Source: Agarophyton chilense (taxonomy: Eukaryota > Rhodophyta > Florideophyceae > Gracilariales > Gracilariaceae). From it: 64,000 nucleotides of DNA. Below are positions 2 through 59,866 of this stretch, one piece after another. The notes below the pieces were generated by a model, which worked only from the letters and a program-made list of their open reading frames with translations, was not told where the DNA came from and made no database searches. The stretch lies in assembly GCA_030374765.1 (NCBI GenBank), contig JARGXX010000075.1:682001-746000 (forward strand), written 5' to 3'. The translations under genes were made by a program, and so were the position numbers. The stretch's first letter is position 1, and every line of letters begins with the position of its first letter.

Positions 2-1186
2 CGCGATGAATTCGGCTTCGACCTACGGATGTACCGGACTCAGGGTGAGATCGGCTATTGTGACTGCCTTGCGGCGTTGGAAACTTAAGCATGGCGCGGT
101 CAACCGCGAGCCCGTCAAAAAGCGATCTGCTGGGTCCGTCCGATCATTCGTGAGTCTCGATATCGGTGGTTACAGAACTTCGTCCGCAAGGAGCGTCGGG
201 GCAGGTCCCGCTTTGGGTTCCTTGTCTTTTATCAGAACACGGAGATAAACCGAACTAGTCCCTTTTACCAGTTTGGGCGATATGTTCCCCTGCCTGGGTG
301 GTGGTCCTCCGTGGAGGTGTGCCAGGGATGTTACGTGGAGTTGCCTCCAGTCGTCTCCTATCTGGGCTCGTACCTAATCGAGGATCCGCACTCCGGCTTA
401 TAGTACGTGGTCCTAACCGAATGGGCAGTCCGCGCCGCAGCATACATCTTGTGGGAAGCCTACGACCAGTATCGACTGTGGTATCTTCCTCCGCGTTTGC
501 GTGGTTACATCCGGCAGCTGGACCTTCAACTCCCTCTTGGAGGTGTCAATAACGCTGATGAAGCTCAGGAGCTCATCGACATCAGCGGGCGTGTCGACTG
601 GGCTGTCGTGCCTGTCCGGCAGAGCGGCCGTGGTCAAGAAGCCGGTGGGGCTGATCGGTCTCCGGGGCGACGCTCGCCGTTGGCGGGAGATTTCATCTTC
701 TTTAACCCATGGGAGCAGCAAGGGATCTCCGAGGCGGAGGTGTCGGCATTCCGGATGGCTCCGCGAGGCATACCATACGGGCACCCCGTGGGGTTTGTCA
801 ACTCAGATGACTTCTACTACGCCTATGGCGGTGATGATCTCCCGGAGGAGGCGGGCGCATACCGTGGCGACGAGGTCATGGAAGACGTGGTAGACCCCGA
901 TGGTGCCGATACTACGGCGCGGCCGGCGCAGGGAGCGACTCACGCAGGTGCGGTGGTCGATCCAGTGGCGGCGCCATTGCCGGACGAATCGGAAGTTGTC
1001 GAGGTTCCCATACGCCCAGAGGCGATCGTGATCTCCCAGCTCCTTTGGGGTGTTGGACTGAACGCCCAAGCGGCGAGCGGCGACATCAGTGCGATGAGAG
1101 ACGCCCTCGCGGCACGCCTGGCCGGTGGGAGTAACCGTTCTAGCGATTCGGGTGGCGCGCACGGCAGTCCGGGTTATTTCAACTAA
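2..1186 (+). pseudogene. Opposite-strand accessory ORF of Gypsy-1 (copy 1)
   Basis: This reading frame runs against gag-pol and is open to the left edge, so its start is missing. Two in-frame stops interrupt it (TAA 86-88, TAG 401-403); the last open part is 407-1186. It aligns with the plus-strand frame at 29303-30985 in Gypsy-2 over nearly its full length. Shared blocks include a stretch of the form LW(D/E)AYDxxRxWY near 449-484, a VDWxxVP block, a block SPGR...AGDF...NPW, an acidic linker, and a C-terminal helix-like segment. No signal peptide or membrane segment is obvious, and I recognise no known domain. The position 3' of pol and antisense to it recalls the additional antisense ORFs described in some plant Gypsy elements, but homology to those is not shown here. 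The gene and pol converge across a pyrimidine-rich spacer (1187-1377). Confidence 0.75.
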
Positions 1187-1377
1187 TCCTTTGTGATCTT
1201 GGTTATTATATTCCGCTGTGCGGTAGTGTGTGCAGAAACTTCGAAAATAGTAAACTGCTTCCGTCTATGACGTTTTTGTTTTCTTTTTTCTCTTCCACTT
1301 CTTCTGAGTGTCCTTCTCCAGGTCTTCTGTGCATCTTCTCCTTCTTCCAAGGGTCCTTATCCAGATCTTTTGTTCCT

Positions 1378-8467: not shown

Positions 8468-9340
8468 GAGATCAGAATCCGTTACACGTGAGTATCCAAA
8501 CCCGATCGGCTAGTGGGGCCAAGAAACTCCCTCAAAGAGGGCAACTGAGGTCAACCTCAAGTTGTGAGTCCTCTTTCCGATTAATCGTGACTGAGTGTGC
8601 CCGACTCAAACTTCGAAGTTCGGTTTACTTGGTGTAGGACAACGCTTGGAGCGGAGACACCACGAAGATGTTCGGGATCTTCCTCTCTTGAAAGATACGC
8701 CTCAGGCGGAAAAGACGCGTCCCAGCGGAGCACAGAAACAGAGCCACTCTGGAAAGGGACGACGGAGTCGGGTGTAAGACCGAGGCCAATCCGGCGGGAT
8801 ATACCTAGAGTGTTTAGGTGAGCACGGCACAGTCCGGGGTGAGACCAATTCTATGCGGAGCGGTACCACGGCGATTGTCGGAAAAGGAGCGAGGAAACAT
8901 TCGTATGAGGTGGACGAGCGGGTTGAGTGGTGCGGCCACTCACGAGAGCCAAAAAGTAAAACGAGAGAAAAACGGGGGGGAAACCATATACAGGGGCGAG
9001 ACTACGACAAGTGTCGGCGATTAAATATGAACCCACGGTGGTGGTAGCACTCTGGTCGACAGAGAGGTGGATGAAGTAACGTGCCACGGGCGCTCACGCA
9101 GTATGTGGTGAAGACGCGCCGAAGGCGAAAAGTCCAGAGCCAAGACTCCCTCCTTGGGATCCCAAGAGGGTGTCTACTGGGGAGCAGTGCTCAACCTTCT
9201 ATGTAGTGTGGCGCGCGGCTCCTGACAGTGAGAGCGCGCCCGAAAAATAGACACTAAATAGCGATAGCGTAGCCAAATAAAAACTAAAAATTACTAAATA
9301 ATACTAACCATTAGGTAGAGTCCGGGCCACATGTGGGACG
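8468..9340. other. Stretch between Gypsy-1 gag and the tandem repeat; no gene seen
   Basis: This interval should hold the leader and 5' LTR of Gypsy-1 if the element was complete. I see no convincing primer-binding site or LTR terminus, and the partner LTR lies outside the window, so the boundary stays open. Short open frames here have no recognisable product. Confidence 0.5.
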
Positions 9341-9692
9341 CCTCGTACTCGAGCGTTGGCATCCGTGCAGTCCACGGGTTCCACCCGTGTGCACTTCCGG
9401 TCCTACCCGGCTGTCAGCACGCAATAGCGGTATAGCTTGTCATAGCCCAAGCTATTCCTCAAGCGAGCAAAACTTCTAAGTTCTGCGAAGAAACCCCCAT
9501 GAAGGGCATTGTCCTTCACCTCGTACTCGAGCACTGGCATCCGTGCAGTCCACGGGTTCCACCCGTGTGCACTTCTGGTCCTACCCGGCCGTCAGCACGC
9601 AATAGCGGTATAGCTTGTCATAGACCAAGCTATTCCTCAAGCGAGCGAAATCTCTAAGTCCTGGGAAGAAACCCCATTGAAGGGCATTGCTC
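9341..9692. repeat. 178-bp tandem duplication
   Basis: Two head-to-tail copies, 9341-9518 and 9519 to about 9692, stay in register at an offset of 178 bp and differ at only a few bases. The unit starts CCTCGTACTCGAGC and ends near GAAGGGCATTG. The right edge coincides with the start of the Gypsy-3 relic at about 9693. The repeats may be part of an LTR or satellite-like unit; nothing coding is seen. Confidence 0.85.
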
Positions 9693-13425: not shown

Positions 13426-13966
13426 AGTGGAAGAACCGCCTCAATTTCAACTGGAAGATACCGAGTTCGAGGAAAGAAGCAGCGGAATAAATTCAAACAA
13501 TGGACCTGGGAAAAATATCAAAAGAGGGTGCAACGGGAGGACCGCTAAGATTAGCCTAAGTCGGGTGAAACAAGCCGGATTCCTCTGTGTATCTGTGTGG
13601 ACGAAGAACAAGAACAAGAAGAAGAAGAAGAACCAGATTGGGTCGGGGTGGTCGGGAGCCTCGGCCTGGGCCTAGGGGTAAGCCTCTAGACCCGAAAGGG
13701 TCGGGCCCGAGTGGGGATATTGCCCCCCGGGTCCAACATGACCTAAAATTTTTGATTTCTATTGTTTGTAAGGAAAGGTAAGTGACGAAGGGTACACTAC
13801 ACTGATTGATACCAATCCTAAGTTTGTCCAGCGTCGCAGGGAGATTGAAATGTTGAACAATCTGGAAGCATTCCCGTCTCTTCAACAGACGAGGTGGTGC
13901 TGTTCATTCGTAGTCCCGGAGACCTACGAAGAACGCCCGGAAAGAAATGTCTAACCTCAGCGAAAA

Positions 13967-17155: not shown

Positions 17156-17197
17156 TATCTTTAATTATTGAGCAGGGCAGCTTCTGCACCTATCCAA

Positions 17198-17295
17198 TGA
17201 CAGACCGTACACGTTGCCTCCAGACCAAGGAATAGATAGTCCACCAGACGCCGACGTCGACCCAAGTAAAGATAGACATCTTGTGCACTCCGTCA
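17198..17295 (+). repeat. Copia-4 5' LTR (98 bp, internally deleted)
   Basis: It starts TGACAGACCGTACA and ends CACTCCGTCA. It matches the last 98 bases of the 3' LTR with three differences. Compared with the 142-bp 3' LTR it lacks 44 bp, exactly the interval between two TGACA(G/T)ACCGTACA repeats there. Confidence 0.9.
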
Positions 17296-17307: not shown

Positions 17308-17457
17308 TCACTCACAAATCGATCCCACATCCGCACGATCCCGCCGACTCCACCGCCGCCAAGAGCAAGCAACATTCGTCGACATAACAGCGGACCTCTT
17401 AAGACTCGTCTACCAAGAACAAAAGTATACCTTACAAGCAGATAACACCATCACACT

Positions 17458-20400
17458 ATGGCGAACGACTCCAAATCCGAAATCCCACAACTCGAAAAAG
17501 CAAACTACGGACCTTGGCTCGTAGCGCTACGCGCCTACGCACGACGCAACGAGTGCCTAGATCATCTCACAAGCAACTTACCCAAACCACAGGCAGCCGC
17601 TGAACTCAAATCATTCAACAACAAGGAAGACCTGCTCGTCGGAAAAATACTATCCACGACTCCCACAGATATCCTAAACCTACTGATAACACCAGAAAGC
17701 GATCCATCACCACACGATCTCCTGCAGTACATAACGAACCATCTTAACACGGCAAACCAAGACAACCACAAATACCTCAAACAAGAAGCGGAAGACACCA
17801 TCTTCGAACCTGGGATGGACATTACGGAGTATCTCGAGAAGCATCTAGATATCAGAGCTCGTATGGTAGCCGCGAGATACCCGGGAATATCAGACCAAAG
17901 CCTCACAGTCTCTTTCATGATCGAGGGACTAAAACACAATCCAGACACCGCACAGATTGGCATCACCTTCTTCTCAACAAAACCCAGCACCCCACAAGAA
18001 TTCGCCAGCCAATTCAAAATGATACACAAATACGTACACACAACATCCCGCACTTTCGGACTCTCTGCCCACGGCCTTACCCGGGACCACACACGTACTC
18101 CTACCCAACGACAACGGACTCATACCACCCCGCGGTACAGAGAGCGCCACGCGAACCCGTGCCAGCACCACATCGCCCTCGGCGTGCGCCCTCCACGCCA
18201 TACAGACACTGAATGCCGAGACCCAAACCACCCGCGTCACAGAAACGAACGCGCACCAGCCCGCGGCCGACGCCCACAACCGCGCGCTCGGGCCCTATAT
18301 GTCGTAAACAACGACAACGAAAACCCCCTGCAAGAACTGCAATACGCCTCTAAAGACTCTGACAGCCACGGTAAGCTAATTTTGGATTCCGGAGCACACC
18401 CAACACATGTCCCAAGCCCTTCCGCATTACTACATCCCACACGCCAAACACTGCAAACGAAAACAGCAATGAACCAGTCCGTGCCCTGTACGCACGCCGG
18501 CCAGACCGCGATCCTCACCAGCAAGGGTAAAAACCTCACACTACCCGCCGTGTGCACACCTCGAGTCCCCGACACCCTTCTGTCTGTCCACGACATCGCA
18601 GTGCGGTCAGGCGCAGTAACCTTCGACCCCGTTAGAGCCTTCATCATTCAACTAAAGAAAGACAGGCTCCCCAAAGTTATTGGCGTCGCCCCATGGAACC
18701 CTAAACACAACGCCTACATCCTCTCGCGATCACGAAAAACAGCAGTAGCCCGCACAAGCCGCATAATCCCAATCTCGAAATGCTCTGCTCCCCCCGAAAA
18801 GCAAACGCATCTGCACACGAATCCAACCGCCAACGACCAACCCCACCCACGAACAAAACTTTCCACCAAGCACATCCACAGCCACCACGGCCCATCCTCC
18901 TACCGATCAGCGAGGCGTGAACCACTAATCCACAAACACTCTCCACCACCAGACCCGACCCACCGACCATCGCCATCCCAACTTATATACCACGACTGGC
19001 ACCTTCGCTTAAACCACGCCCCGATGCGCGCCATACAAGTCATGGAAAACAGGAAAATACTCCCTAACATGCCTGGAAACCTCCGCAACCACCCGCCGTC
19101 CCTAACATGCACATTTTGCGCATACGGCAAACAAACACCACGCCCACATCACCTCACCTCACACCACTATGCCCTTGGCTACTACTTCAGCTCGGACACA
19201 TGCGGCCCGATCAACCCTCCCTCTTGCCACGGAAACCGACATTTCTTCAGCTTCATAGACAGCCACAGTAGATACCTCATCCTCTACTTCCTCAAATCAC
19301 GCTCTGAAGTCCTTCCCTGCATCCGGGAACTCCTGAACATACTCCAAACCAGCGGCCCTCGTACCCCCGCAATATACCGTACCGACAATGCTAAGGAATT
19401 CCTATCAAAGAAGGCATCTCAACTGTACCGCACATACAAAATAGAACATCGCACAACGACCCCACATCAACCCCAAGAAAACTCCATCGCGGAACGGATC
19501 AACCAAACACTCATGCGCGCTGCCCGCGCGAACCTACATCACTCCCAACTCCCCGACAACTACTGAGAGGACGCCGTACGAAACGTAGCCTTCAAGTATA
19601 ATATCATGTACCACCGCTCCATAGACAACTCCCCTGCAACCCTTTGGAACAACCGCCAGCCCAACCCCAGCCGCATCTTTTCCTTCGGCCAACTAGGCCA
19701 TACACCCATACACAAAGCACAAAAACACAAACTCGAGCCCCGCGCCGACCCCGCTCGATATATGTATAGCATCTCCGACACAATGATAGTCGTACAGAAC
19801 CTCCGCACAAATCAAACACAAAAACTGAGAGCCGTCGACTTCATACCATACTACCCAGAATCCGATCCCACCGTCTCAAACCCCACAGTACGCAGGGCCC
19901 TCACAAAGAACCCCAACCCGCCAACCATAACCCCTTTTACATGCGACCCAACTTCCAGAAAAGATGCGGGACGATTCCCCGACGCAGAGGCATGGTCCGC
20001 AGCACACAACACCGAACTTCGAAAATTGGACGACAACGGCACGATCAAATGGATACACAACTCCGATCTACCCATTACAGCCAAACCCATACCACTCAAA
20101 ATGACATACCGGTACAAAAGGTCTGAGCACGGCCAAGTCCTAGAACGCAAGGCCAGATGCACAGTGGGCGGCGACCGCATGCTCCCGAGCATTCACTACG
20201 ACCCTTCCAACGTCGCCACCCACATGGCCGAGAAGACATCTATTCGATCCATCTTTGCGATAGCTGCACAAAACAAATGGCCTATCGAACACTTCGACAT
20301 ATCTTCGGCATACTTCCATGAAAATTACGACACCTCCTTCGCGGTACACGTCCGACATCCCCCGCTATTCGATGGTACCTTCGCTCATCCAGGTAAATAT

Positions 20401-21594
20401 GGACGCCTCATCGGTAACCTCTATGGCACACCACCAGCTGCTTTCATCTACGCCGATGCCCTTCGAAACTACTTCAAGATCCACGGCTACGACACCACCT
20501 CAGCTGACCAAAACGTCATCTTCCACGAAAACCACCGGGGCAAACTCATATGCGCACTTAGTATGGACGACTTCCTAGTCACGGCGACCGACACACAGCT
20601 CATCACCGACCTTTACACCAAACTGTCCAAGAAGTACAAAATTAAGCGCCTGGGCCACCCCACCAAGTACCTGAACTGGATCGTCCATCGAACGGACAAC
20701 GGAAACAAACACATATCACAACCACACGTGATACAGGACATCTTTCAGACCAACAACATGAGCGCATGCAACACGAAACCAACCCCACTGCCAAAGCAAA
20801 AAATGCTCCTCACAACACAAAACCGGCCACTCTCCTCACAGGATACAACCGAATACCACCACACCTTAGGATCACTGCGCTATCTCGCCGATTCAACGCG
20901 GCCCGACATTACCTTTGCAACCAACTGCCTCGCCTGTGCCATGCAAAATCCCACTAGGAGCGACCAGCAGAAATTAAAATGGCTCCTACGGTATCTAGCT
21001 GGTACCCGCAATCTCGGCATCCTATACTCCAGCAACCAACCCACAAAACACCCACTCTGCTCTTTCTCTGATGCAAACTACGCCAACGCAACCAACCGTC
21101 GCTCCTACAGCGGCTCTGTACACCTATTGTAGGGATCCCCCATCTGCTGGTCTTCCAAGAAACAATCTATCACCGCACTCAGCACGTGCGAAGCTGAGTA
21201 TATCACCGCTTCTTCTACGGCCCAAGTCACCAACTGGCTTCGTCGCCTACTCCAGGACATCGGCATCGACCCAATAACACCATCTCCGCTTTTCATAGAC
21301 AACTCCAGCACCCTCCAAATCATCGACAACACGGCGCCCACAAAACGACGCAAACTTATCGATATCCGCCATCATCACATCGCCAACAACAGACAGCGAG
21401 GAGTTGTCACCCCAACCCACGTCGAAAGCTCCCGAAACTCGGCCGACCCATTCACAAAGCCGCTAAACCGCGTGGCACACCACAACCATCTGAAGCGACT
21501 GCACATGACCACGTCTGCCCCTCCATCAGCGCAGCAGCACCGGGGACTGACAGACCGTACAAGACCTCATGCTGCTGCGCCCAGCCAACACTGA
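17458..21594 (+). pseudogene. Copia-4 gag-pol polyprotein
   Basis: The frame runs from ATG 17458 to a TGA at 21592-21594. It is interrupted by TGA at 19564-19566, where the family has Trp, and TAG at 21130-21132. Order: gag (about residues 1-230); a nucleocapsid-type Cys/His cluster of the form CX2H...HX4C; protease with LDSGA near residues 309-313; pre-integrase and integrase with Asp in SSDTCG, Asp in YRTDNAKEF and Glu in NSIAERI; RT with SMDDFL near residue 1036 instead of the common YVDD; RNase H with Asp in SDANYANATNRRSYSG and a KLIDIRHHHI block. The second stop falls at the start of the RNase H strand ending GSPICWSSKKQ. It would encode all proteins needed for retrotransposition if the stops were absent. 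Confidence 0.92.
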
Positions 21595-21689
21595 CATACC
21601 GTACACGTTGCCTCCAGACCAAGGAATAGATAGTCCACCAGACGCCGACGCCGACCCAAGTAAAGAGAGACATCTTGTGCACTCCGTCA
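21548..21689 (+). repeat. Copia-4 3' LTR (142 bp)
   Basis: It starts TGACAGACCGTACA after a short purine run (GGGGA, 21542-21546, possible polypurine tract) and ends CACTCCGTCA. An internal near-repeat TGACATACCGTACA lies 44 bp downstream at 21592. The stop codon of gag-pol lies within it. Confidence 0.85.
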
Positions 21690-28468: not shown

Positions 28469-29134
28469 TGTAGTATCCGCTTTAACGGAGAGAGCAGACA
28501 CCTGCGACAGCGTTCGGACTGCCGATGGGTCGCTTGCGGCGAAAAAAAAGGGGTCGTAGAGCTACAACACCAGGGAGCTGGAAGTGGGGTGTAAGGCCAC
28601 TACTCGCCAGCGAGGGTGAACAGTGCAACTGTAAAACGTTGATGGAACGTAGGTACGAGACGGCTCGTGAAGTGGTTGGGGGCTGACTATCTATTATAGC
28701 TCGTCCGGATCTCCGGTTAAGGAATCCTAAGCGAGGAACAGAATAGTCATGATGCCCATGTTGTCTCCTTTACTTGGAGTCGGCGCTCACCTCTGGTACA
28801 CTATATACTGTGTACCAGGGTGAGTTCCCAAATAAATATATAAATAATACCCAGTGGTCAGCCACTTAGCCAAACCACTGTATGGGTATGGTCCTTAATG
28901 GACGTCTAGCTACAAAGGGTAGTAAAACCAGCCACGTGGATCGCCACTACATGCGCCGTTGCAAGCCCCTCCACTCGTGATACCCCGTGTCCCAACAATG
29001 TACCCTGCCTCCTGGCATCCTACGAGGTGTGTCGCTTCTTATCCTAGCACTGACCAGGCCACTCAGTAATGAGTTCCAAACGCGACTTTGTGACAAAGAA
29101 ACCATCGGATACCCCGACATAGTAGAATACTACA
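28469..29134 (-). repeat. Gypsy-2 3' LTR
   Basis: It matches 39913-40578 base for base in register, with no indels seen. A long hairpin (28786-28824: CTCACC-T-CTGGTACAC, loop TATATACT, GTGTACCAGGGTGAG) is conserved in both LTRs. An A/T-rich block (28831-28850) reads TTATTTATATATTTATT on the element strand and could serve as promoter. Open frames inside are LTR sequence, not genes. Confidence 0.95.
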
Positions 29135-29144: not shown

Positions 29145-29302
29145 GTTAAGCGCGAACCATGGGGGACGCAAGAAGCGTTTATACGCTGTCGGACCGGTGT
29201 TCCGGGTACTCATCGTCATCACTAATTCCTCGCCGCCCGACCAACTCTTACAGTTCTCAACAGCATTCTGTTCCTCACCGCTCTTCAGCTTGATCTCTCG
29301 CG

Positions 29303-30985
29303 ATGGATCCAAACGCCAGGTCCAACCCGTTTCAGCCCTCCTCTGAAGATGTGCCTTCTGGGGCTCCGTTTTACACTGCTGGTTCTGCGTCGCATCATAC
29401 TGCTCAACTCGGTCCATACCGTTCGTTCCCCACACCGTACATCGGATTCCGGTCGGTACCGTTACCTCAGCCAACCGTGGCTCCGATGCCGAACGCGGCT
29501 TGCGTCGCCTCTGCGGGTGTGATTCGAGCTCCTTCTCGTGGTGCTCAGCGGAGCTACCCGCACTCTGCGGATTTCTATTGACGAGATCCTCTCGACAACG
29601 TTGAACTTTTCGCGCAAGCGCCCTGGTTTGATCCAGTTGCTATCCACGATGACGCGTTGATACAACAGTATGTACACGGTGGGTATTTCCCTGACGGTAT
29701 TCTGGAACACGCGATTCATAGCGACGAATGGGTGAGCCATATTGCTTTGCCAGATACCGCGATTGCGCGATATTCAACGGAAACCTTGTCCGAAGCCCGT
29801 ACGCGGTTCACCAAGCTGATTTACCGGCGTCTTCACCGATTCATCAGTACGGTTCTCCTCCCGCAGGACTGCGAACTAGATACCTGGAAAGCCCGTACCG
29901 ACGGTGAAGGTTACTCGTATATTGAGACACTCGTTGAAGTCGATGTTAGCGGTTGGCGCGGTGTGCGCCGTGTGCGTGATGCAGATCTCCGCTTTCAGCA
30001 ACCTCTTCTCCGTGTGGAATTCCGCTTCCTTCGAAAGCGTGGTATTCCCTATTGGGATTATTCCCGTTGGTAACGTCGTACCCGATCAAGTTTGGGCTAT
30101 TTGGTGCCGTATCAAATGATCGAGATTGACTGCATCCGGCAGAACGCGCGCTTCGGGCGCTACATCGGTATTCCGGAGCATTGAGCGGCGATCGAGAGTC
30201 CTCGTGGTTGCCCTGTGGAGCTCCCACTGGCGATCTCCTACATCGGGTCCGCGTTGGTTAACGACCCGTTCTCGGGATATTGGACGGTGGTTTATACCGA
30301 GTTTATCGCCAAGATGGCCGTCTTCCTCCTGTGGGATGCTTATGATACCTGTAGAGTTTGGTACATGTCGCCCACAGCGCGAAAGTATGCGAGAGAACTC
30401 GATCTTTCCCTTGTTCTGGGATCCCGTGGGAACCATGCCGACTTCCTCCATCTTGTGGATTTGATCGACAGTGTCGACTGGTCTGGAGTGCCAGCTGATC
30501 AATCCGCTCGCCGAATCCGTGCAAGACACTATGACCATTCTCCTGGACGAACAGCAAGTGCTGGAGATTTCGTTTGGTACAACCCCTGGACGCGCCAGTT
30601 GATCACCTCCGAGCAGGCTCGCTTTCTTCGGGAGAACCCGCGTGACATGCCACCGAACCAGCTTACTGGATACGTTTACAATGGTACTCCATCCGATAAC
30701 GGAGAGGAACCGTATGAGGAAGCGCCGGGAGCTGAGACTGAACTCGGTTACGAGGACGAGCCAGAGCTGGCAGGCGTAGCGACTTCTGTCGACCAATCTG
30801 CAGCGGCGTGAGTTGCTCAAGAGTACTGTCATGAGTTTACCCAACAACCGAGTGCAGTGCCGGTCGAATATCAAGGCTTTGATGCGCTGAGGCAGTTCCT
30901 GTTAGATGCGGGCTTTCCCGTGGACCAAGTTGAGGGTGATCGCGCACAGCTTCTTGCGAACCTGCGTGCTCGCACGTCTCTTTGA
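29303..30985 (+). pseudogene. Opposite-strand accessory ORF of Gypsy-2 (copy 2, most complete)
   Basis: One plus-strand frame of 561 codons runs from ATG 29303 to TGA 30983-30985, interrupted by TGA 29579-29581, TAA 30071-30073, TGA 30182-30184 and TGA 30809-30811. It aligns across these stops with copy 1 (2-1186). Order: a Pro/Ser-rich N-terminus of about 90 residues, a middle region with GYSYIETLVEVDVSGW, a block VELPLAISYIGS, the LWDAYDTCRVWY block (30329-30364), VDWSGVP, the SPGR...AGDF...NPW block, an acidic linker, and a C-terminal QFLLDAG...LLANLRAR segment. The minus strand here also has a long open frame (30086-30874), but the conserved protein is on the plus strand. Function is unknown. 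It starts 169 bp from the 3' LTR, so its promoter might lie in or near that LTR. Confidence 0.75.
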
Positions 30986-31095
30986 TGATCCTAGAAAAGA
31001 CTCCTAGTCAACACCCTTGCGGTGGTATCTTGATACCAATAAACTCCGATGACTTCGTGTCTTCACGTTCTCTTCTTATCTTCTAGTCTTCATCT

Positions 31096-31262
31096 CTTCT
31101 CGCTTCTCGAGTTCTTAACTTCTTCTTCTCGCTTCTCGAGTTTCATACTTCCCTTCTCGCTTCTCGAGTTCTTAACTTCTTCTTCTCGCTTCTCGAGTTT
31201 CATACTTCCCTTCTCGCTTCTCGAGTTCTTAACTTCTTCTTCTCGCTTCTTGAGTTTGTCCT
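31096..31262. repeat. 57-bp pyrimidine-rich tandem repeat
   Basis: About three units of 57 bp, with CGCTTCTCGAGTTCTTAAC starting at 31101, 31158 and 31215. Each unit contains two CTTCTCGCTTCTCGAG blocks. It lies between the ends of the accessory ORF (30985) and pol (31371), which converge here. The matching spacer in Gypsy-1 (1187-1377) is also pyrimidine-rich but not tandemly repeated. Confidence 0.9.
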
Positions 31263-31370: not shown

Positions 31371-34300
31371 TTAGAAATGGGATGTGCCCATGAGCCCGAC
31401 TATCGAGGAGTCGATCTCCCTGCGGAGTGGTAATCGCATGCGTCGATGATATCGCAGGAGTTGCGAACGGGGGATATGAGCTATAGGTTCCCACGTATCC
31501 GCTTCCGGAGGAAAACCGTACCAACAGACTCGATATAGTAATTCTCTAGTATCTTCATGCTCGCCATGTTCACATATGCGATCCATAACATATTCCTGAG
31601 CGTTACCCAATGCTTTCGCTGTTGGCGCGAGACTCCTGTTAACAGGTTTGAAATGCCTTAGGGCTGACCCTAGCGTCTCTGTGTTAGCAGTCTCAGCGTC
31701 GCTAAGCGTTCGCTCGTCGACTAACTGTCGTTCTGCCCGCAGGGGCAGTGTACTCATTCCTTGAGAACCTTTCTCAGATAAAGAGCGATCCTGTTTTCCA
31801 GGTTCCATAGACGCGTACTTCTTGCTAATTCTCAATTCCATTCGTGGATGAACTTCCTTCGGTTTTTCTGATTCTGACCGCTCTTCAGTGGACGATGGTG
31901 CTTGCACCACGACAGGAGGCGATACCTCTTCTTCTTCCTTCCCACGAAGGATGGGAGCCGATATCGGCGGAACAGCGAGTGGCGCTTCACCTGACGGTTC
32001 AGCCTGAAGCAGCAACGGCTCGTTTTCGCGTGCACTCGTTTCCAAGTCCTTGGGGCCAAAATCCAAAACATCTTTCCTGCTTTCAGGTTCCACGTCTGTA
32101 CTTACGGGTGTGCGCGTGCCACGAGGCATATCCCGATATTTTGGAAGCTGTCCGCGATTGGCGTACGCAACCGCCGTCGGTGGGAGATCAGGAGCTTTCT
32201 CCTGCGCTCGAGCCATTGGTGGCGGTTCACTCTCCCCAGAGTCACTTCGGCTTTTGCCTTGACGTTCCGGCGCACTTGCCTCCTTAGTTCTACCAGATAT
32301 ATGGACTTCCACATGCGGGTCAGGCGCGGCTCTAACGCGATCGCGCGATATACGTTCAACGTCTTCACCTGTCTTGATGACCACTGTGTCTTCATCAAGG
32401 TCCACCGCTTTGAAGGGTTCAGCCGTTATCGGAAACAACTTATGACGAGATTCTTCCTGTTTGTCCGGTCTTTCAACTCGCACGAAGACATGACCTCCTA
32501 CTCGGATTGCCGGATTTCCTCTTCGCCTTCTGGCGTCATAGTTTCGCTTATAGCGAGCTTTCGTCTTTGGTAACTCTTTAGTGGCTTCTTCCGCTCTGGC
32601 CTTCAGGTCATTCCTCCATTTCAGATGGTACTTAGCCGGGGTCGGCGCGTCCATTTCTGTCTCGTCGTCGAGCGCAACCGGTAAAGCCGGAGGGTTACGT
32701 GAGAGCACGAGGTCGAACGGTGCCGTCTTTGTAGAGGTATGAACTTGCGTATTGTACGCGTAGCACAGAGTATTAGTAAACATGTCCCATTCTTTCGGGA
32801 GGTCCGCGATGTAGTGTCGTAATGCTGCTATCAGCGTGCGGTTGAAACGCTCCACCTGACCGTTGCATTGCGGATGATAGGTCGTGGTAAACACGTTTCG
32901 AATGCCCATAATGCGGCAAACATTCTGAAAGAACTTCGAAACGAATTGCTTCCCATTATCTGATAACAGAACTTCTGGTGGTCCGCATATAAATACCCAG
33001 TGTTTGATAAACGCCTGTGCGATTACGGTTGCGGTTATCTGCTTCAGTGGCACAGTCCGCGCTAGCTTCGAGAAGCGGTCGATGGTTACCAATAGATAGC
33101 GATAACCTCGCCTTGAGCGAATCAATTCCCCTAGGATGTCGATACTGACGTATTGTAAAGGCGCTTTCGCCTGGAATAAAGCAATCGGTTTCCGCTTCCT
33201 GTAAAGCTTCAAGCGAATCTTCGCACATGTTGTACACAACCTCACTGTAGCATGGCAGTCCATTGCCAAAGTAGGCCAGTAAAAGTTTCTTCTTAGAGTC
33301 ATGAACAACTTCGTTCCTCCTGGATGACCAGACAGCCTGATGTAGTGTGCCAGATGGAGTACTCGACTCTTCAAGACGTGTGGAATCACGATTTTATCAT
33401 GCTTTTCGACATTCCTTAACAGTATTCCTCGTGAATCGAGTGGAAAGGGGAGCTCCTCCCCCCCGTTAAGACGAGAGCGTATCGACGCACAAAACTTATT
33501 GGCGTGTTGCTCATTGAGGAGCTCAGTGCACGAGATTCGCTCGAGTTGAACTGAAGGGTCAGTGTCTGCTAATGCAAGGAACGGGTCTGCATCCGAATAA
33601 TCATCAAGGGTCTCTTGTTCCTCTTCTTCAAAAGATGGTGAATGGGTCTCCATGTAGAAGCAAGGTATCTCTTCATCTATTTCGCCTTGGGTTTCGCCAA
33701 GTGTTTTGAGTCGCGATAGCGCGTCAGCTTGGACATTGGCCAATTCCTTCTTATACTTCACTTCGAAATCGAATTCAGAAAGGCGTAAGCGCCATCGTGT
33801 GAGACGTCCAGACGGGTCTGTAATGGACGGTAACCATCGTAGAGACGAATGATCCGTGTTGACGGTAAAACGTTCTCTTTGGAGATACGTTCGAAATGTG
33901 GTTAGAGCCCAAACGACTGCAAGGCATTCCTTTTCTGAAACTGAATACTTTTTCTCAGCTGCGTTCAGCGATCTTGACGAGTAACCAATGGGTTTGCGTT
34001 CACCATCAGGGTGTGTTTGAAAAATGGCACACCCTACTTGGTACTCGCTAGAGTCGGTATCCACTGAGTATGGCAGGTTGGGGATGGGCAGCGCCAAGAC
34101 TGGGGCTGTAATAATCTTTGTCTTCAGCGCGTCGAACGATTCCACTTCAGCTTGTCTGAATTGTTCCAGCTGTACTGGTTGTCCTTTACGCAGCTTTGCG
34201 TTGAGCGGTGCCGCTATATGCGAGTATCGCGGCACGAATCGTCGGTAGACGTTGCACAAGCCGAGGAAAGAACGCAATTGCTTCTGTGTCGACGGAGGTT

Positions 34301-34618
34301 GTACTTCGCGGAGAGCCACTGTTTGTGCCTCTTGAATGGCAAGCTGTCCCGGCTTGATCACTTGTTCTAAGTACCGGACGGTGCCAGCGAACCATTCGCA
34401 TTTCTTGAACTTCAAGGTGATACCTGCGCTCTGTAGTGCTTTGAGAATCTCCTCGACATGCCGTAAATGGCTTTCCACATCCTGGGAAAAGATGATCACA
34501 TCGTCCAAATAGACTAAACAAGTCTTCCACTTGTATCATGAGATCAAGATGTCCAGAGTACGCTAGAAAGTAGCCGGTGAATTCGTTAAGCCAAAGGGCA
34601 TCCTTTTGAAACCGTAGA
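31371..34618 (-). pseudogene. Gypsy-2 pol, RT (second half), RNase H, integrase, chromodomain
   Basis: From the second half of RT (GFKRMPFG, next to the solo LTR at 34619) the frame reads through the catalytic YLDD motif near 34508-34520 to the C-terminus. Two in-frame stops lie in RT: TAG 34563-34565, where relatives have Gln, and TGA 34536-34538, where they have Arg. After that about 1045 residues are open. RNase H has VDTDSSEYQVG, EKECLAVVWAL and TDHSSLRW. The integrase has the zinc site (HYIRLSGHPGG, CTTCAK) and the triad in SIDILG, LLSDNG and GQVERFN. A charged Pro/Glu-rich linker and a chromodomain (block RVCWYGFPPEADTWEP) end it at 31371. Confidence 0.9.
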
Positions 34619-35291
34619 TCACAACGTGAGCGCAGGTTAGGTAAAGCAAAAGGAAGAAGAGGGATAAAAGACGAGAAAAAGAGAAAAATAAAAGAAGAGA
34701 AACAAAGGAAGGTAGTCAGCCTTGACAATTTACTTCGATCGTTGGCGACCGTCATTCCAAACTACATCTACCTCGCACGCAGTTCCGCCGCCGGTGCTGA
34801 CCGTCGGCGGGTCACCCACGTCTCACACCTTGCCACTGTGCGACGAGGAGTTGCGCGCCAAAACAATTTCAAACATGAAGCATATCAAATAAAAACTCAA
34901 AAAATCATCCAAAGTGGTGCGCCAGTGCCAACCACCCCGCGCAGCCCAGATTCGGCTGTTACGGCCAAACCCCGTATCCAGCCCACATTCGCACATTCTC
35001 TCCAACTGCATAGCCCGTTCTCATTCAGCGCTCTCGTCCAATCAAATCGCTCCACTTGGGCCGAAGCCCCAACACACCCCATTAGAACCAGACCACTTGT
35101 CCATACCACGTTGCATGAGGGCATTTGCAGTAGCCAATCAGATGGCCGTTTCACGTTGAGATTGAGATGAGGCGCATATGCGTTTTTTCGTGGAGGGTGC
35201 CCAAAAGTGCCCATGCTTAAATCTACCTTTTGTTTTCCACTATTTCCAACACTCCAAAGGGCTTGGGGGCAGAGTCGACCAAACCTCAACA
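34619..35291 (-). repeat. Solo LTR of the Copia-3 family inside Gypsy-2 RT
   Basis: 673 bp, the same length as the LTRs at 56013-56685 and 62636-63308. On the minus strand it begins TGTTGAGGTTTGG and ends CGTTGTGA. The flanks GTAGA (34614-34618) and GTACA (35292-35296) are a 5-bp target duplication with one change. It carries the shared U3 palindrome CGCATATGCG (35173-35182) and an inverted CCAAT box. No coding part of the element remains, so LTR-LTR recombination removed it. Confidence 0.9.
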
Positions 35292-35296
35292 GTACA

Positions 35297-35416
35297 GACC
35301 GGCGTGACACGTAAATGCGGTTTTGTCTTGGTCTTCTTCCGTTACAGGAACCTGCCAACAGCCAGAGTTGGCGTCCAACGTGGTGAACACGTTCGCTTCT
35401 CCTAAGCTGTCAATAA
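35297..35416 (-). pseudogene. Gypsy-2 RT fragment between two solo LTRs
   Basis: About 120 bp encode the RT block SLGEANVFTTLDAN and TAFTCHAGLY, which in Gypsy-1 is contiguous with the neighbouring RT parts. It is stranded between two independent LTR insertions. Confidence 0.9.
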
Positions 35417-36085
35417 TGATGGAAAGGTTGAGGGATGAAAGGAAAGTTCGCCAGCTCTGGCTCGGATTTACTTGGAGGCGCTCAATCTCTTACTCAAATA
35501 CAACTCAAAAACGTCAGCCAACTAGACGCCAACCCAGAGTAAACCCTAGACTACAAAGCAGGGACACCCAATACTACCAATCATAATCAAGCACGACATT
35601 AACCCTAGCCAAAGTTCATTGCATCACACAACAAGGCATTACAACAGTGCACAGCACATCATTACACTGACGTGTGCACAAATTCAATTTGCCAGCACAC
35701 GCTTCTTGCAATCCGCCTCCATACACGTTTGCCTTCCAGCACAGTACACCAAGTCTTCTGTGATACACATGACACGCTCTTCTCCAAGTACATTCGTTAC
35801 ACCTTGTGAGACGTGTACATAGTACACCAGCTGGACATCCTGAACAGCGTGCACAATAGTACAAGTAGACAAAGTACAAAGGTGTACAACAGAAAATCCC
35901 AATAGTGCCATACTACTTGTACACACCACATTGCAGGTGCATATTTGCAGTAGCCAATCACAGCACGATTTCACGTTGAGGTCCGGCTGATACGCATATG
36001 CGCTTTTCCAGAGGCAACCTCCAAAACAGCCCATGCTCTCCTGGACATTTGGTTTTCAGTGACAGCATAGGCACTTGCACCAACA
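35417..36085 (-). repeat. Solo LTR of the Copia-1 family inside Gypsy-2 RT
   Basis: 669 bp, homologous to the LTRs at 52537-53223 and 59159-59846, with a short internal deletion near its left end. On the minus strand it begins TGTTGG and ends CCATCA. The flanks AATAA (35412-35416) and AATAC (36086-36090) are a 5-bp target duplication with one change. The palindrome CGCATATGCG lies at 35993-36002. Confidence 0.88.
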
Positions 36086-37501
36086 AATACATTCGTCCAT
36101 TCGAGGCAACGGGTATGTATCCCGAACTGTAACTGCGTTCAGTTTTCGATAATCGATGCAGAATCGTAAAGAACCATCAGGTTTCGGAACCAGCACCACT
36201 GGTGAGGCCCAAGCAGATTGAGCTGCTTCGACTACCCCTTCTTCCAGCATTTTGCTGAAATTCTTCTCCTCGATTTGGATAGTTCGCGGTCCCGCTCTGT
36301 AGGGTGGTTGGATGATGGGTCGTGACCCTGGGACCAAATCAATATGGTGTTCCGTAGCGCAGATCTCTCCTAGTTTTCCACTCCACATGGATGTATAATT
36401 CTTCAGCATAGACCTGATCTTCGTTCTGTAGTGTTCCGACACATGTACTAAGCCTAGCTCATCGACCAAGCTCTCTGGATCCTTTGCCGTTTGCAATTGA
36501 TCTCCAGACGGATTTTGCAGTTCTTCGTCTGTGTCACCGACATGGGTTAATCCCAATACGTCTGCGGTAGAAATATGAGTAGGGACCACCACTGTGGGAT
36601 GAGGCAAGGCTGTTGCAACAACCTGATTCTTCGATATCTGATAATAGTTTTCAGTGAAGTTACTCACTAGTATCCTAAAGGGGCTACCAGGATCAACCTG
36701 AACAATGCCGTTAGCGACTAGCAATCCACGGGACTCGTACATCCGAGTATTTGGTTGAATTACCACGAGTCCGTGTCGTTCTGTTCTTACTTGAACCCAA
36801 GTTTGGGTTTGCGCCTTCAACATGGCACTCTTCCCCACTAGAATCCTCGGCGAGACACGTCCTCGGGATTTCCCGTATTCCATAGATGGTGGAAGTAGAG
36901 GTGCTTTGGGGCAACGACGCATTGGTTTGCGAACAATTGGTACCATTGATCCATCATCTAGTTCCACTAGTTTTCTTCGCGGGAGAATGGCTTCGACAAA
37001 CTTGTCGCAATGATCACGTCCTAGTACCACTGGTGCAGCTAACGTCTTACAGACGATGAAGTCGACTAGGACTACAAAGCGTCCCAAACGCACCACGAGT
37101 CGAACTGTTCCCAGTGTCTTCACAGCATTTTTGTTGGCATCCCAGATGTCCGGTAAAGGACCGTATCGAATACGTTCTAAGTCAGCAGGAGCGAGCTCCG
37201 ATTCCCGTATAAAGTTCGGACCAGCACCTGCGTCCAGGATAGTCAATCGACGAGATAACAGATTCCTTTCAGAGCCGATGTCGGCATAGACCTTATAGTT
37301 TCTTCTAGACAACACCATGAGGTAATTTTCCCGTTTTGAAGGACAAGTATAACGTCTCCAAGGACGATGTAACTCACAGTCAAACTGTACTCGCTTTCCG
37401 TCCGGCGGATTGATTCCGTACTGCGGAAATTTCTGAGGCCTCAAGAGAATCTTGGGCTTCCAAGCGCGGGAGCAGGGAGGCGAGCTCTCCCTCGTCAGCA
37501 C
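36086..37501 (-). pseudogene. Gypsy-2 pol, protease and N-terminal RT
   Basis: The frame opens just after gag and holds the protease (LDAGAGPN active site, then PVVLGRDHCDKF), a spacer with LVHVSEHYRTKIRSML, and the first RT blocks (WASPVVLVPKPDGS, FCIDYRKLNAVTV, DTYPLPRMDE). It is open down to the solo LTR at 36085, which cuts RT. The active site reads DAGAG where Gypsy-1 reads DTGAG. The frame relative to gag differs, which suggests programmed frameshifting or a separate start; it opens with GTG, so the true start is unclear. Confidence 0.88.
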
Positions 37502-37542
37502 TATGGGATCGACTAGTGCCGACCCCCTAGGGGCTCCCTCAC

Positions 37543-39697
37543 TTAGTTTTCCGGTTGCACCGGCTTATTCGCCTCAAAGGGGCCTCTTCCTGCCGGGGTT
37601 CTGGGTTGTAACACTTCAGCATTCTGAGCAACAGGCTTGTCCGTCCGGCGCATTGTTGTCTGAGAAAACCAACTTTTGGCTTTCCAATACATGCCTGCCG
37701 GTACGCGGCTCCTTTCTTCTTCTGAGAGTACTTCATAATACGTCATGATACCACTCAGATCCTTTGCAGGAAGCGTGCATTCTGCACTCAAATGGTGTTT
37801 TCCATAACATGAATAACAGATCAAACCGTCACGACGCTTGGTCAACGTAGGTTGTGAACGGTATGCCGTGCGAGTATCCACCCATCCGGGTTTCCCGTTC
37901 TTAAAACCTCCTTGTGGTGGCACCGTGTAGGGACGGTACATAGGGCGATGGCCCTCCATAGCCATTAGGGCTTCCTCCTCCTGAGACTCCGAGTGTGGGA
38001 GATCCTCTGTAGGTACAGAATAGTCCGTATATTCTATTAAATGGACCGCCTCCTCATGCCAGTCTCTCCCTTTGGGTGCCAACGACGAATCTCGCGAGTC
38101 AACTGGAGATTTCAGATGTAGCAGTTTTCTGCGCTGATTAACTCTGGCGGAGACCTTCTCCTTACTCATTGAGGTTCCCAAAGCCACTGAACGACAGGGG
38201 CTACCACGCGCTCTGGCCGCGTCTCCTTCAGCTTTCGCAAACTAAACTAACTCCGAAAAGGAGACTCTTCCATGCTTCTCTCGATATAGAGCTACCAACG
38301 ACTTGATGCTCGGGTCCAGCCCGTCGATGTAAAAGGTAATCTTGTCCTCCGTCAAGTGGACGTTTCCACAGCGGAGTGAAGCTTTGTTAAGCCTTGAGCT
38401 GTACTCAGCTTCGCCCTCCTCAGGCTTTTGGGTCACATCCCTTAGGTCCAGGATCGCCTGACGTATCGCGTTTGAAGTCGCGTAACTGCGCAGCAAATAC
38501 TGCACCGCCTCTGGCCATGAGGTAACGCCGCCTTCATCGGCTGTCAATGATCCGCATACGGAACGATATTGCTCTAAAGAAAAACCCTTCAGGAAGTTTG
38601 GTAAAGAAACAAATGCCTGTGGTTCACTCATCTCTAGAGTGTCCGCTTCGGCAACGAATCGAGTGAGAAACTCGATAACGAGAATGGGGGTCTTCCCATC
38701 AAATGTTAAATCATTAAGGCCGATCTTCAATCGTTTGATGTGATCCTTCACCTTCGCGGTTTCGCGTCCTGAGAGCTTCTTGCTCTTCACCTTCATACGG
38801 TAGTACCTGTAATTCAGGACCGTGCGATAAAGCGGATTCGTGCATGGGAGCACCTTCAATCCTCTGTAAGGTGAGCCGTTTTTTTCTCATTAACCACGAA
38901 GACGTGTTCTTCTTCCGAGATCGGGACCTTCGATGACCATCATCACTGTCGTCGTCATCAAACGTATCTGAATCATCATAATCATCCGTACTGGAACTGA
39001 AGCCCTCCGTGCGTGACGATTCATCACTCGAATCACGTGCGGACTTCCGCTTCTTACGTCGTGACTTCGACTTCTTCGAACGAGCTTCCTTCAAAGGAGC
39101 TCCTTCCTATTCCAGCACGACTGGTTTAGCAGCAGTCTGCGCATGAACTGCCGCCTCCAGGCGTTCTAAACGAGGGTTAACTCGAGTGAGGACTTCCTCT
39201 GCATCCACGATTAAGCCGGGTAGCGCATCGGGCGTATTCCCGTACCTCTCCAGTAGATGGTTCAAATCCTCACGTAGTGTTTTCACTGATGCAGAGAGCT
39301 GCTTCCCATCGTCTTGACGAACGAGTGCTTGATGCGCGCTGCGTAATTGTTCGACATCAGCGATAAGAGCAGCGATCTGCGATTCCAACGCAACCATGCG
39401 CACACGCGAAGCGCCTGACTCAGACTTCAGACGACGCACTTCCCTGCGCAAATCATCCTCTTCTTGAGGTCCGACGACCTCAGGGTCAACTACGGCTTCT
39501 GTGGTGGGCGTGACTGCCGCTGCCACAGGGGCCGGTACATCCGAGAGCTCTCGTTCATCATTCACCGAGCGTGAACGCGGCATCGCTTGACGATACAGCC
39601 GCTGTCCGGCTTCAACAGACGAGGCGAGCATCGGTTTCGGGGGTGGTCCCGCAGGACCGGGGCGACCAGTACCCGACTGGCTTCGGGTCTTTGGCAT
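37543..39697 (-). pseudogene. Gypsy-2 gag
   Basis: I start at Met 39697 (MPKTRSQSG), which aligns with the Gypsy-1 gag start; about 215 bp separate it from the 5' LTR. Order: Ser/Pro-rich N-terminus, coiled coil (about residues 80-135), a Lys/Arg then Asp/Ser tract, the gag domain (38242-38859), an intact CX2CX4HX4C zinc knuckle near 37780-37830 (CYSCYGKHHLSAEC), and a C-terminus ending at 37543-37545. Breaks: TAG 39107-39109, a frameshift near 38883 at a run of seven A on the element strand, and TAG 38242-38244 where Gypsy-1 has Gln. Confidence 0.85.
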
Positions 39698-39890
39698 CCC
39701 AGACCAAACCTGAGTCCAGATGCGAACCAAATGGTGTCTTCGACTTCTCGACCACGTGTTCAACCACGATTAATTTCGCAATTGCCGGAGGTGGTTCGAT
39801 AAACAATAACTGTAGTGATTCCACTTCTTCCAAGTATCGATATCGATTCCACGTTCCAGGAACGAATTGTTCAATGCAGCTGATCACAGT

Positions 39891-39910
39891 GGTTCTAAGT
39901 CGGGAGACCA
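39891..39910 (-). promoter_or_regulatory. Gypsy-2 primer-binding site candidate
   Basis: On the element strand, two bases after the 5' LTR, TGGTCTCCCGACTTAGAACC begins with the TGG that pairs with a tRNA CCA end. I could not match it to a specific tRNA. Confidence 0.55.
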
Positions 39911-39912
39911 CT

Positions 39913-40578
39913 TGTAGTATCCGCTCTAACGGAGAGAGCAGACACCTGCGACAGCCTTCGGACTGCCGATGGGTCGCTTGCGGCGAAAGAAAAGGGGTGG
40001 TAGAGCTACAACACCAGCGAGCTGGAAGTCGGGTGTAAGGCCACTACTCGCCAGCGAGGTTGAACAGTGCAACTGTAAAACGTTGATGGAACGTAGGCAC
40101 GAGACGGCTCGTGAAGTGGTTGGGAGCTGATTATCTATTATGGCTCGTCCGGATCTCCGGTTGAGGAATCCTAAGCGAGTAACAGAATAGCCATGGTGCC
40201 CATGTTGTCTCCTTTACTTGGAGTCGGCGCTCACCTCTGGTACACTATATACTGTGTACCAGGGTGAGTGCCCAAATAAATATATAAATAATACCCAATG
40301 GTCAGCCACTTAGCCAAACCACTGTATGGGTATGGTCCCTAATGGACGTCTAGCTACAAAGGGTAGTAAAACCAGCCACGCGGATCGCCACTACATGCGC
40401 CGTTGCAAGCCCCTCCACTCGTGATACCCCGTGTCCCAACAATGTACCCTGCCTCCTGGCATCCTACGCGGTGTGTCACTTCTTATCCTAGCACTGACCA
40501 GGCCACTCAGTAATGAGTTCCAAACGCGACTTTGTGACAAAGAAACCATCGGATTCCCCGACATAGTAGAATACTACA
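39913..40578 (-). repeat. Gypsy-2 5' LTR
   Basis: Partner of 28469-29134, same termini and length. The hairpin is conserved at 40230-40268. About 22 substitutions separate the two LTRs by eye, so the insertion is not recent. Confidence 0.95.
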
Positions 40579-53223: not shown

Positions 53224-53243
53224 CTCCCTCTCTGTCACTGATT

Positions 53244-59846: not shown

Positions 59847-59866
59847 CTCCCTCTCTGTCACTGACT

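What the first reader, a model, noticed from the sequence alone, without database searches (positions are those of the whole stretch)
29303..30985. A conserved gene on the opposite strand of a chromodomain Gypsy lineage
Directly seen: a plus-strand frame beyond the end of minus-strand pol in Gypsy-2 aligns, across several internal stops, with one at 2-1186 in Gypsy-1, over nearly the whole length including the C-terminal helix-like block. The elements are well diverged and both copies decayed, so chance is unlikely. Known: additional antisense ORFs occur in some plant Gypsy elements, mostly of unknown function. Inference: this lineage carries an accessory gene of about 560 codons, transcribed against gag-pol. 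I recognise no domain in it.
Basis: partly seen in the sequence, partly recalled or inferred. Interest (0 to 1): 0.88.

Follow-up and report, generated by a model that had tools for sequence, protein, structure and literature searches.

The report
Antisense gene in seaweed retrotransposons
Hundreds of retrotransposon copies in a farmed red seaweed carry, on the strand opposite their usual genes, an extra protein gene that selection has kept and that has no recognised relatives, so an oddity known from plants also occurs in red algae with an unrelated protein.

Summary
In the window's Gypsy-2 element (LTRs 28469-29134 and 39913-40578, pol on the minus strand) a plus-strand gene runs from 29303, or from an ATG at 29159, to 30985, with four internal stops after 29303, in one frame. 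Gypsy-1 carries its relative at 2-1186.

The window lies in a 79.8-Mb genome; public proteins matching its copies are named Agarophyton chilense. Three diverged families (A, B, C) carry the gene. Twelve of 12 family A copies fetched for a long frame read 606-611 codons open.

In fetched loci, pol lies antisense beyond the gene in 20 of 20 (A), 29 of 31 (B; 2 had no pol match) and 4 of 4 (C). Variants private to one copy look neutral. Variants shared by at least four copies are constrained (N/S 0.54 in A, not significant alone; 0.41 in B, p=0.003). A and B share 38% core identity.

Twenty-six database proteins belong; the 11 named ones are from A. chilensis and Gracilariopsis chorda. No significant Pfam, PDB or fold match, no plant TRP28 domain.

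Best reading: an LTR-expressed antisense accessory gene (aORF-3R) for a nuclear regulatory protein. Gene and selection are shown; expression and function are inferred.

The parts
28469..29134 (-). 3' LTR of Gypsy-2 (left end; TG...CA), bordered inward by a purine-rich tract in element sense (GAGGGGGG)
   Evidence: 96.7% identical over 666 bp to 39913-40578; ends and tract read; flanks CATTA / CTTTA fit a 5-bp target duplication with one mismatch
29159..30985 (+). antisense accessory gene (aORF) of Gypsy-2, longest reading: ATG in the context ACCATGG 24 bases inside the LTR edge; 29303 is an alternative in-frame ATG, the start of the public gene model P0001
   Evidence: four internal stops after 29303 and one between 29159 and 29303
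31038..31043 (+). AATAAA downstream of the aORF stop, candidate polyadenylation signal (motif match only)
31095..31256 (.). tandem repeat (29/57-bp unit) in the spacer between the convergent stops of aORF and pol
   Evidence: direct repeats at the same place in sister copies L010 and L015
31371..34535 (-). pol of Gypsy-2: end of RT, RNase H, integrase, chromodomain
   Evidence: Pfam RVT_1, RT_RNaseH, Integrase_H2C2, rve above cut-off; Chromo 28.6 bits against a cut-off of 25.1
34619..35291 (.). 673-bp insert of Copia-associated sequence interrupting Gypsy-2 (solo-LTR-sized; not proven to be an LTR)
   Evidence: 97% identical to 56013-56685; Gypsy-2 sequence stops at 34618 and resumes at 35288
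35416..36086 (.). second insert of about 671 bp, related to 52559-53209
   Evidence: 35421-36071 is 89% identical to 52559-53209; Gypsy-2 sequence present at 35288-35415 and from 36087
36087..39769 (-). 5' half of Gypsy-2 coding region (gag and start of pol; broken frames)
   Evidence: match to sister copy L011 traced to 39091, where that 10-kb locus ends; three of its four long frames were scanned and none has a Pfam hit above cut-off
39913..40578 (-). 5' LTR of Gypsy-2
2..1186 (+). antisense accessory gene of Gypsy-1 (C-terminal part; the start lies outside the window)
   Evidence: L021
1378..5384 (-). pol of Gypsy-1 in two overlapping frames (RT, RNase H, integrase, weak chromodomain)
   Evidence: rve, RVT_1 and RT_RNaseH above cut-off; Chromo 23.0 bits, under the cut-off of 25.1
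8633..9518 (-). 5' LTR of Gypsy-1; its 3' LTR lies left of the window (last base 695 bases left of base 1)
   Evidence: 94.4% identical over 886 bp

Best explanation
[quoted passage not shown] In families A and B the first in-frame ATG lies 24 and 35 bases from the LTR edge. The simplest expression model is therefore an antisense promoter inside the 3' LTR, reading inward, with the gene ending in the short spacer before the convergent pol stop. The protein has an N-terminal disordered tail, a mainly helical core with no recognised fold, a negatively charged linker, and a C-terminal helical hairpin that may be of SAP/HeH type. I read it as a nuclear nucleic-acid-binding accessory protein that tunes the element's own transcription or the handling of its RNA or pre-integration complex. 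Shown: the gene, its orientation, its intact copies, constraint on its amino acids, a homologous protein in a second genus. Inferred: the LTR promoter, translation, nuclear location, nucleic-acid binding, regulatory role.
For: Placement: pol lies antisense beyond the gene in 20 of 20 family A loci and 29 of 31 family B loci (2 had no pol match); distances between the ends of the two matches are 277-632 bases in A and 155-222 in B, but for one of 1158 where the gene match is cut. In family C, 4 of 4 sampled loci have a chromodomain pol end antisense beyond the gene (in one, L061, the chromodomain piece itself is inverted). Of 150 listed family A pol ends, 88 have a listed aORF match, 88 of 88 antisense, median gap 500 bases. 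Of 8 further pol ends without a listed match, 7 hold aORF sequence, some of it truncated, and 1 does not. Selection: in the aORF frame, singleton variants have N/S 1.19 (A, 20 copies) and 0.95 (B, 27 of 31 loci, 4 dropped as too short), while variants shared by at least 4 copies have 0.54 and 0.41; Fisher p 0.21 for A, 0.003 for B, 0.0004 pooled. A pol stretch in 13 A copies (2 partial) behaves alike: singletons 0.94, shared by at least 3 copies 0.35. Protein: helical core, low-confidence tails; negative linker in 6 of 6 examined (net -5 to -17). C-terminus: Pfam Ish1 in 2 of 14 pieces, best E 0.0023 but under the curated cut-off; two of the five Foldseek matches of the C-terminal half are SAP domains, at E 5.2 and 8.2. 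By analogy, the Grande gene23 protein is nuclear and TRP28 is predicted to bind DNA (PMC7264820 sections 5, 7, 8 read; PMC11963269 passages read).
Against: No transcript was examined. All SAP/HeH evidence is below significance: Ish1 is found in 1 of 19 full-length members at E 0.09, and of 14 PDB sequences listed for a profile of the block none is a SAP domain. Short basic runs occur in 11 of 14 proteins, at differing places apart from one RKR that refA, P0001 and P0007 appear to share, so no nuclear signal is conserved across the family. One conserved hydrophobic helix (Kyte-Doolittle maximum 1.0-1.9; 2 of 14 above 1.6) leaves a membrane role open. The TATATA motifs at 28802 and 28837 read the same on both strands and say nothing about direction. 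The constraint in family A rests on 14 shared variants only.
Confidence: 0.42

Rival explanations
1. The protein is a structural or assembly partner (an extra capsid, packaging or envelope-like factor) made from antisense RNA, not a regulator.
For: Helical core, and one conserved hydrophobic helix with fixed W, L, W and Y residues. Env-like proteins are another class of extra ORF in plant LTR elements (PMC7264820, abstract).
Against: The helix holds charged residues and exceeds the usual membrane threshold in 2 of 14 proteins. Env-like extra ORFs are described in sense orientation (PMC7264820, abstract). No Foldseek match to viral models at E <= 0.001 (the six weak ones, E 2 to 9.5, include one phage-like capsid protein).
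Confidence: 0.2
2. The antisense RNA, not the protein, is what matters: convergent transcription makes double-stranded RNA and small RNAs that limit the element.
For: Any aORF transcript would overlap the 3' end of the gag-pol RNA. The plant review names this option (PMC7264820 section 8).
Against: It does not explain open frames of about 600 codons in three families, constraint on shared variants, 38% core identity with changed codons, or homologous proteins outside this genome. It may act in addition.
Confidence: 0.12
3. The protein acts in integration or target choice, for example as a chromatin or integrase partner alongside the chromodomain.
For: Both window elements carry an integrase with a chromodomain, the one of Gypsy-1 weak; sister copies match these pol ends. 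A possible HeH/SAP-like C-terminus would suit chromatin.
Against: No specific signal; it cannot be told apart from the regulatory reading with sequence alone.
Confidence: 0.18
4. The open frame is a by-product: either a shadow of coding on the other strand, or a captured host gene or unrelated repeat riding along.
For: A minus-strand frame of 271 aa (family A) and one of 283 aa (family B) overlap it and are open in several of the fetched copies.
Against: In the five other frames shared variants give N/S 0.94-2.92 in A and 0.52-2.03 in B, with 1.6-5.0% stop codons, against 0.54/0.41 and 0.15/0.39% in the aORF frame (12 of the 20 A copies were chosen for an open frame, so the A stop figure is biased, the B loci were not). 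The 0.52 in B comes from the frame that shares the wobble position and has 4.1% stops. The gene is at the same place in three diverged families. No hit bears another gene's name; the surroundings of the outside homologues were not seen.
Confidence: 0.03

Closest known systems
[quoted passage not shown]
   Same: Same place (between pol and 3' LTR), same antisense orientation, present in most copies, long, tandem repeats in the same region in about half of Retand elements, function unknown (PMC7264820 sections 5, 7, 8; PMC11963269 passages).
   Different: Red alga, not a flowering plant; the element has a chromodomain, whereas Retand is described as non-chromovirus (PMC11963269 abstract, listing); no PF04195 match, 0 of 19 members up to E 10. 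The gene starts within about 40 bases of the LTR; Grande's promoter is said to lie in the region upstream of gene23 (PMC7264820 section 8).
brtn of Boty-like Gypsy elements in the fungus Botrytis cinerea
   Same: Antisense extra gene in a Gypsy element outside plants (PMC7264820 section 5; PMC8365987 passages).
   Different: Host; brtn itself was not available to compare, so homology was not tested.
Antisense genes of HTLV (antisense promoter inside the 3' LTR)
   Same: Works-like comparison only: an antisense gene transcribed from the 3' LTR (PMC7264820 section 8).
   Different: Different element class; no sequence relation was tested; the LTR promoter here is inferred, not shown.

Membership tests
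Ty3/Gypsy chromovirus (the element) | Gypsy-type RT and RNase H, integrase and a C-terminal chromodomain | tested here: met
   all above cut-off in Gypsy-2 (Chromo 28.6 against 25.1 bits); in Gypsy-1 the chromodomain is under the cut-off (23.0). No pol tree was built
Ty3/Gypsy chromovirus (the element) | LTRs with TG...CA ends, purine tract beside the 3' LTR, short target duplication | tested here: met
   the target duplication has 4 of 5 matching bases in Gypsy-2, and none was recognised for Gypsy-1
aORF-3R (antisense extra ORF between pol and 3' LTR) | ORF between pol and 3' LTR, antisense to gag-pol | tested here: met
   (the LTR itself was checked in Gypsy-1, Gypsy-2 and the family A loci, not in family C)
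aORF-3R (antisense extra ORF between pol and 3' LTR) | Present in most copies and conserved like other element proteins | tested here: met
   Family A only: 88 of 150 listed pol ends have a listed gene match and 7 of 8 sampled others hold it; constraint like pol. The tool scores only the best candidates, so this is not a whole-genome count
aORF-3R (antisense extra ORF between pol and 3' LTR) | Transcribed from its own antisense promoter | not testable with these tools
   No RNA data held
Retand/Tat TRP28 proteins (PF04195) | Transposase_28 domain | tested here: not met
   0 of 19 members match PF04195 up to E 10 (HMMER filters drop most matches above about 0.1)
Env-like extra ORF | Sense orientation with transmembrane segments | tested here: not met
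   Orientation is antisense; hydropathy above 1.6 in only 2 of 14 proteins
SAP/HeH (Ish1-like) C-terminal motif | Significant profile or fold match | tested here: inconclusive
   Ish1 in 2 of 14 pieces, best E 0.0023, 18.7 bits under the cut-off of 26.6; Foldseek SAP hits E 5.2 and 8.2; none among 14 PDB sequences listed by profile

The most novel reading that the evidence does not exclude
A previously undescribed protein family and fold, carried in antisense by red algal chromoviruses, perhaps since before Gracilaria and Gracilariopsis split. It would be made from the 3' LTR and work as a nuclear regulator of the element, an independent invention of the strategy seen with other proteins in plant Retand/Grande elements, fungal Boty and HTLV.
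Probability: 0.35. Interest if true: 0.75.

Novelty: new variant of a known kind. Interest (0 to 1): 0.56.

Why it matters
In the papers I read, antisense extra genes in Gypsy elements are described from flowering plants and one fungal group, with unknown function. A conserved one with no TRP28 domain in red algal chromoviruses suggests that an antisense gene beside the 3' LTR is a recurrent solution, not a plant accident. It also gives a compact system (three families, hundreds of copies that could be dated by their LTRs, pol of the same copies as a built-in control) to ask what such genes do. At the practical level, it is a protein family whose 11 named database members are called only 'unnamed' or 'hypothetical', and it could be mistaken for host genes when red algal genomes are annotated.

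Tried and rejected
Led nowhere: Pfam and NCBIfam scans of full-length members, PDB sequence search, Foldseek and VIA-align with the full model, IMG/VR scan (51 pattern matches, none confirmed). A VIA look at the C-terminal half was not possible and was not repeated. Rejected: the overlapping minus-strand frames (271 and 283 aa) as the real gene, because minus frames show either a nonsynonymous excess among shared variants or, in the wobble-sharing frame, 4-5% stops. Not supported: an intron in family C as implied by the public model P0005, which skips about 35 codons; sister copies list open frames up to 646 aa across that place. Rejected: capture of an unrelated repeat, since the gene keeps its place in three families; I did not check the surroundings of every aORF match. 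Not done: a pol tree, an exact copy count (the tool scores only the best candidates), dating, comparison with brtn or gene23, and surroundings of the homologues in other algae (their contigs are not held). Papers: PMC7264820 abstract and sections 5, 7, 8 read; PMC11963269, PMC8365987, PMC10388701 and PMC12502185 passages only; others seen in search listings only. Searches in which a report of this gene in red algae could have shown: and the more general 24 and 73; no title or abstract start that was listed reports one. The library holds open-licence papers only.

Full report
What was checked. The finding says that a plus-strand frame at 29303-30985, beyond the end of minus-strand pol in a Gypsy element, aligns with another at 2-1186, and that both are copies of one antisense gene. 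Both frames are there. In Gypsy-2 the frame runs without a frameshift through four stop codons to 30985. In Gypsy-1 two stops interrupt it. The Gypsy-2 element is present from LTR to LTR (28469-29134 and 39913-40578, 96.7% identical over 666 bp) and is interrupted by two inserts of about 670 bp at 34619-35291 and 35416-36086. Its pol at 31371-34535 has the end of RT, RNase H, integrase and a chromodomain. Gypsy-1 has 886-bp LTRs, 94.4% identical, one of them left of the window.

Where the window comes from. It lies in a genome of 79.8 Mb in 135 contigs. Public proteins named Agarophyton chilense match copies in it: P0001 is 99.5% identical to the gene of L018 over 556 residues, and P0005 matches one place at 100% over residues 1-363. 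A published G. chilensis assembly is 76 Mb in 138 contigs with 66% repeats, and its authors call the species an important crop (PMC10388701, passages). I therefore kept to observation of the elements.

How many, and how intact. With the 208-aa piece of the Gypsy-2 gene, 150 of 150 scored matches (of 1425 first-look candidates) have E below 1e-118. With the 260-aa Gypsy-1 piece, 147 of 147 (of 1412 candidates) have E below 1e-99. These are two families, A and B. A third family, C, appears with P0005: 33 listed places, one of them the query's own, the other 32 at 67-79% identity. The counts are lower bounds. Of the 150 family A rows, 19 list an open frame of at least 606 aa with no stop in the matched piece. 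I fetched 12 of these 19, chosen for that reason, and 12 of 12 read 606-611 codons from stop to stop. One of the 12, L019, differs at both ends.

Antisense beyond pol. In 20 of 20 family A loci and 29 of 31 family B loci the 3' end of pol lies beyond the gene, on the other strand; in 2 of 31 no pol match was found. In family C, 4 of 4 sampled places have a chromodomain pol end there, 39-60% identical to that of Gypsy-2, again antisense; in one of them (L061) the chromodomain piece is itself inverted. Of 150 listed family A pol ends, 88 have a listed gene match, 88 of 88 antisense, with a median spacing of 500 bases.

Selection on the protein. Variants found in one copy only are near neutral in the gene frame (N/S 1.19 in A, 0.95 in B). 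Variants shared by at least four copies, which most likely passed through active ancestors, are constrained (0.54 on 14 variants in A, 20 copies; 0.41 on 58 in B, 27 of 31 loci, 4 dropped as too short). Variants in two or three copies, and codons with more than one change, were left out. The contrast is not significant for A alone (p 0.21), is for B (p 0.003), and is for both pooled (p 0.0004). A stretch of pol in 13 family A copies (2 of them partial) behaves the same way: singletons 0.94; 0.52 for variants shared by at least two copies, 0.35 by at least three, 0.09 by at least four, the last on 11 variants. Among the other five frames only the one that shares the wobble position approaches this in B (0.52), and it has 4.1% stop codons. 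Between a family A and a family B copy the core is 38% identical, differences are most frequent at third positions (139, 139, 215 of 317), and 73 of 120 identical residues use another codon. This is protein conservation, and it argues against the overlapping minus-strand frames as genes.

Anatomy of the gene. In Gypsy-2 and in the four family A copies printed, an in-frame ATG in the context ACCATGG lies about 24 bases from the LTR edge, and in Gypsy-1 an ATG lies 35 bases from it. A public gene model starts at the later ATG equivalent to 29303 (P0001). I cannot decide between them. An AATAAA stands at 31038, and a tandem repeat fills much of the spacer (31095-31256) before the pol stop. Because the coding region begins almost at the LTR, the promoter is probably inside the LTR. 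That is inference.

The family. Three searches of 5.8 billion proteins gave 9, 17 and 23 hits, 26 different proteins in all (in each only the roughly 8000 candidates sharing most words were scored). Eleven bear an organism name: 8 A. chilensis and 3 Gracilariopsis chorda. The other 15 have no name. Relatives outside A. chilensis and G. chorda are about 31-54% identical to P0007, itself one of the unnamed. Fixed residues cluster in the core. No Pfam, NCBIfam or PDB sequence match is significant for the full-length proteins. Two AlphaFold models (mean pLDDT 66 and 72, pTM 0.60 and 0.58) show a mostly helical core between low-confidence stretches and a C-terminal helical hairpin. Foldseek finds nothing at E <= 0.001 in PDB or viral models. 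The hairpin has weak likeness to Ish1/SAP helix-loop-helix motifs: Ish1 in 2 of 14 pieces, best E 0.0023, under the cut-off; two SAP chains among five Foldseek hits at E 5.2 and 8.2; no support by PDB profile search. That these motifs bind DNA in other proteins is recalled, not from a call.

How it most likely works. An LTR-driven antisense transcript makes a nuclear accessory protein that binds nucleic acid and adjusts the element's expression or its path back into the chromosome. Only the gene and its conservation are shown. Rivals are a structural or envelope-like partner, an integration or targeting partner, and a role of the antisense RNA itself. None is excluded, but a pure RNA role does not explain the protein conservation.

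What it is compared with. A plant review defines aORF-3R as antisense ORFs between pol and 3' LTR, present in most copies of a family, with unknown roles (PMC7264820). In Retand 97% of clusters carry the TRP28 domain, which appears only in flowering plants (PMC11963269, passages). By position and conservation the gene belongs to this kind; by sequence it has no TRP28 match, and it sits in chromodomain elements of a red alga. No listed title or abstract start reports it; the library holds open-licence papers only. I rate it a new variant of a known kind.

Family C placement was tested, the Gypsy-1 ATG distance was corrected to 35 bases, and several statements were narrowed to what the calls saw.

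Noticed in passing
52570-56685 and 59193-63308: Two copies of a 4.1-kb Copia segment (922-aa frame with RVT_2 and integrase domains), 98.8% identical at a 6623-bp period, which looks like a head-to-tail element array or a recent tandem duplication.
   Followed up: partly
9697-11030: Fragment of a further Gypsy pol in the opposite orientation to Gypsy-1, 74-79% complementary to parts of Gypsy-2 (33757-36449).
   Followed up: no
9341-9696: The end of the 5' LTR of Gypsy-1 is repeated: 9341-9518 and 9519-9696, 178 bp, 92% identical.
   Followed up: no
13955-14512: Open frame with a Rieske [2Fe-2S] domain (Pfam E 1e-10), probably a host gene between the elements.
   Followed up: no
17446-21594: A second Copia-type element on the plus strand with strong AT and GC skew, flanked by 101-bp direct repeats 17195-17295 / 21589-21689.
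   Followed up: no
39880-39912: Beside the Gypsy-2 5' LTR a TGG-starting stretch could be a tRNA primer site; the corresponding place in Gypsy-1 has no TGG, so the two families may prime differently. Not compared with tRNA genes.
   Followed up: no
30086-30901 (minus) and 803-1264 (minus): Long minus-strand frames overlapping the antisense gene stay open in several copies; the variant counts argue that they are not genes.
   Followed up: yes
L061 (G000:C115:1746700-1748300): In this family C copy the chromodomain piece of pol lies on the opposite strand to the integrase piece, a local inversion.
   Followed up: no
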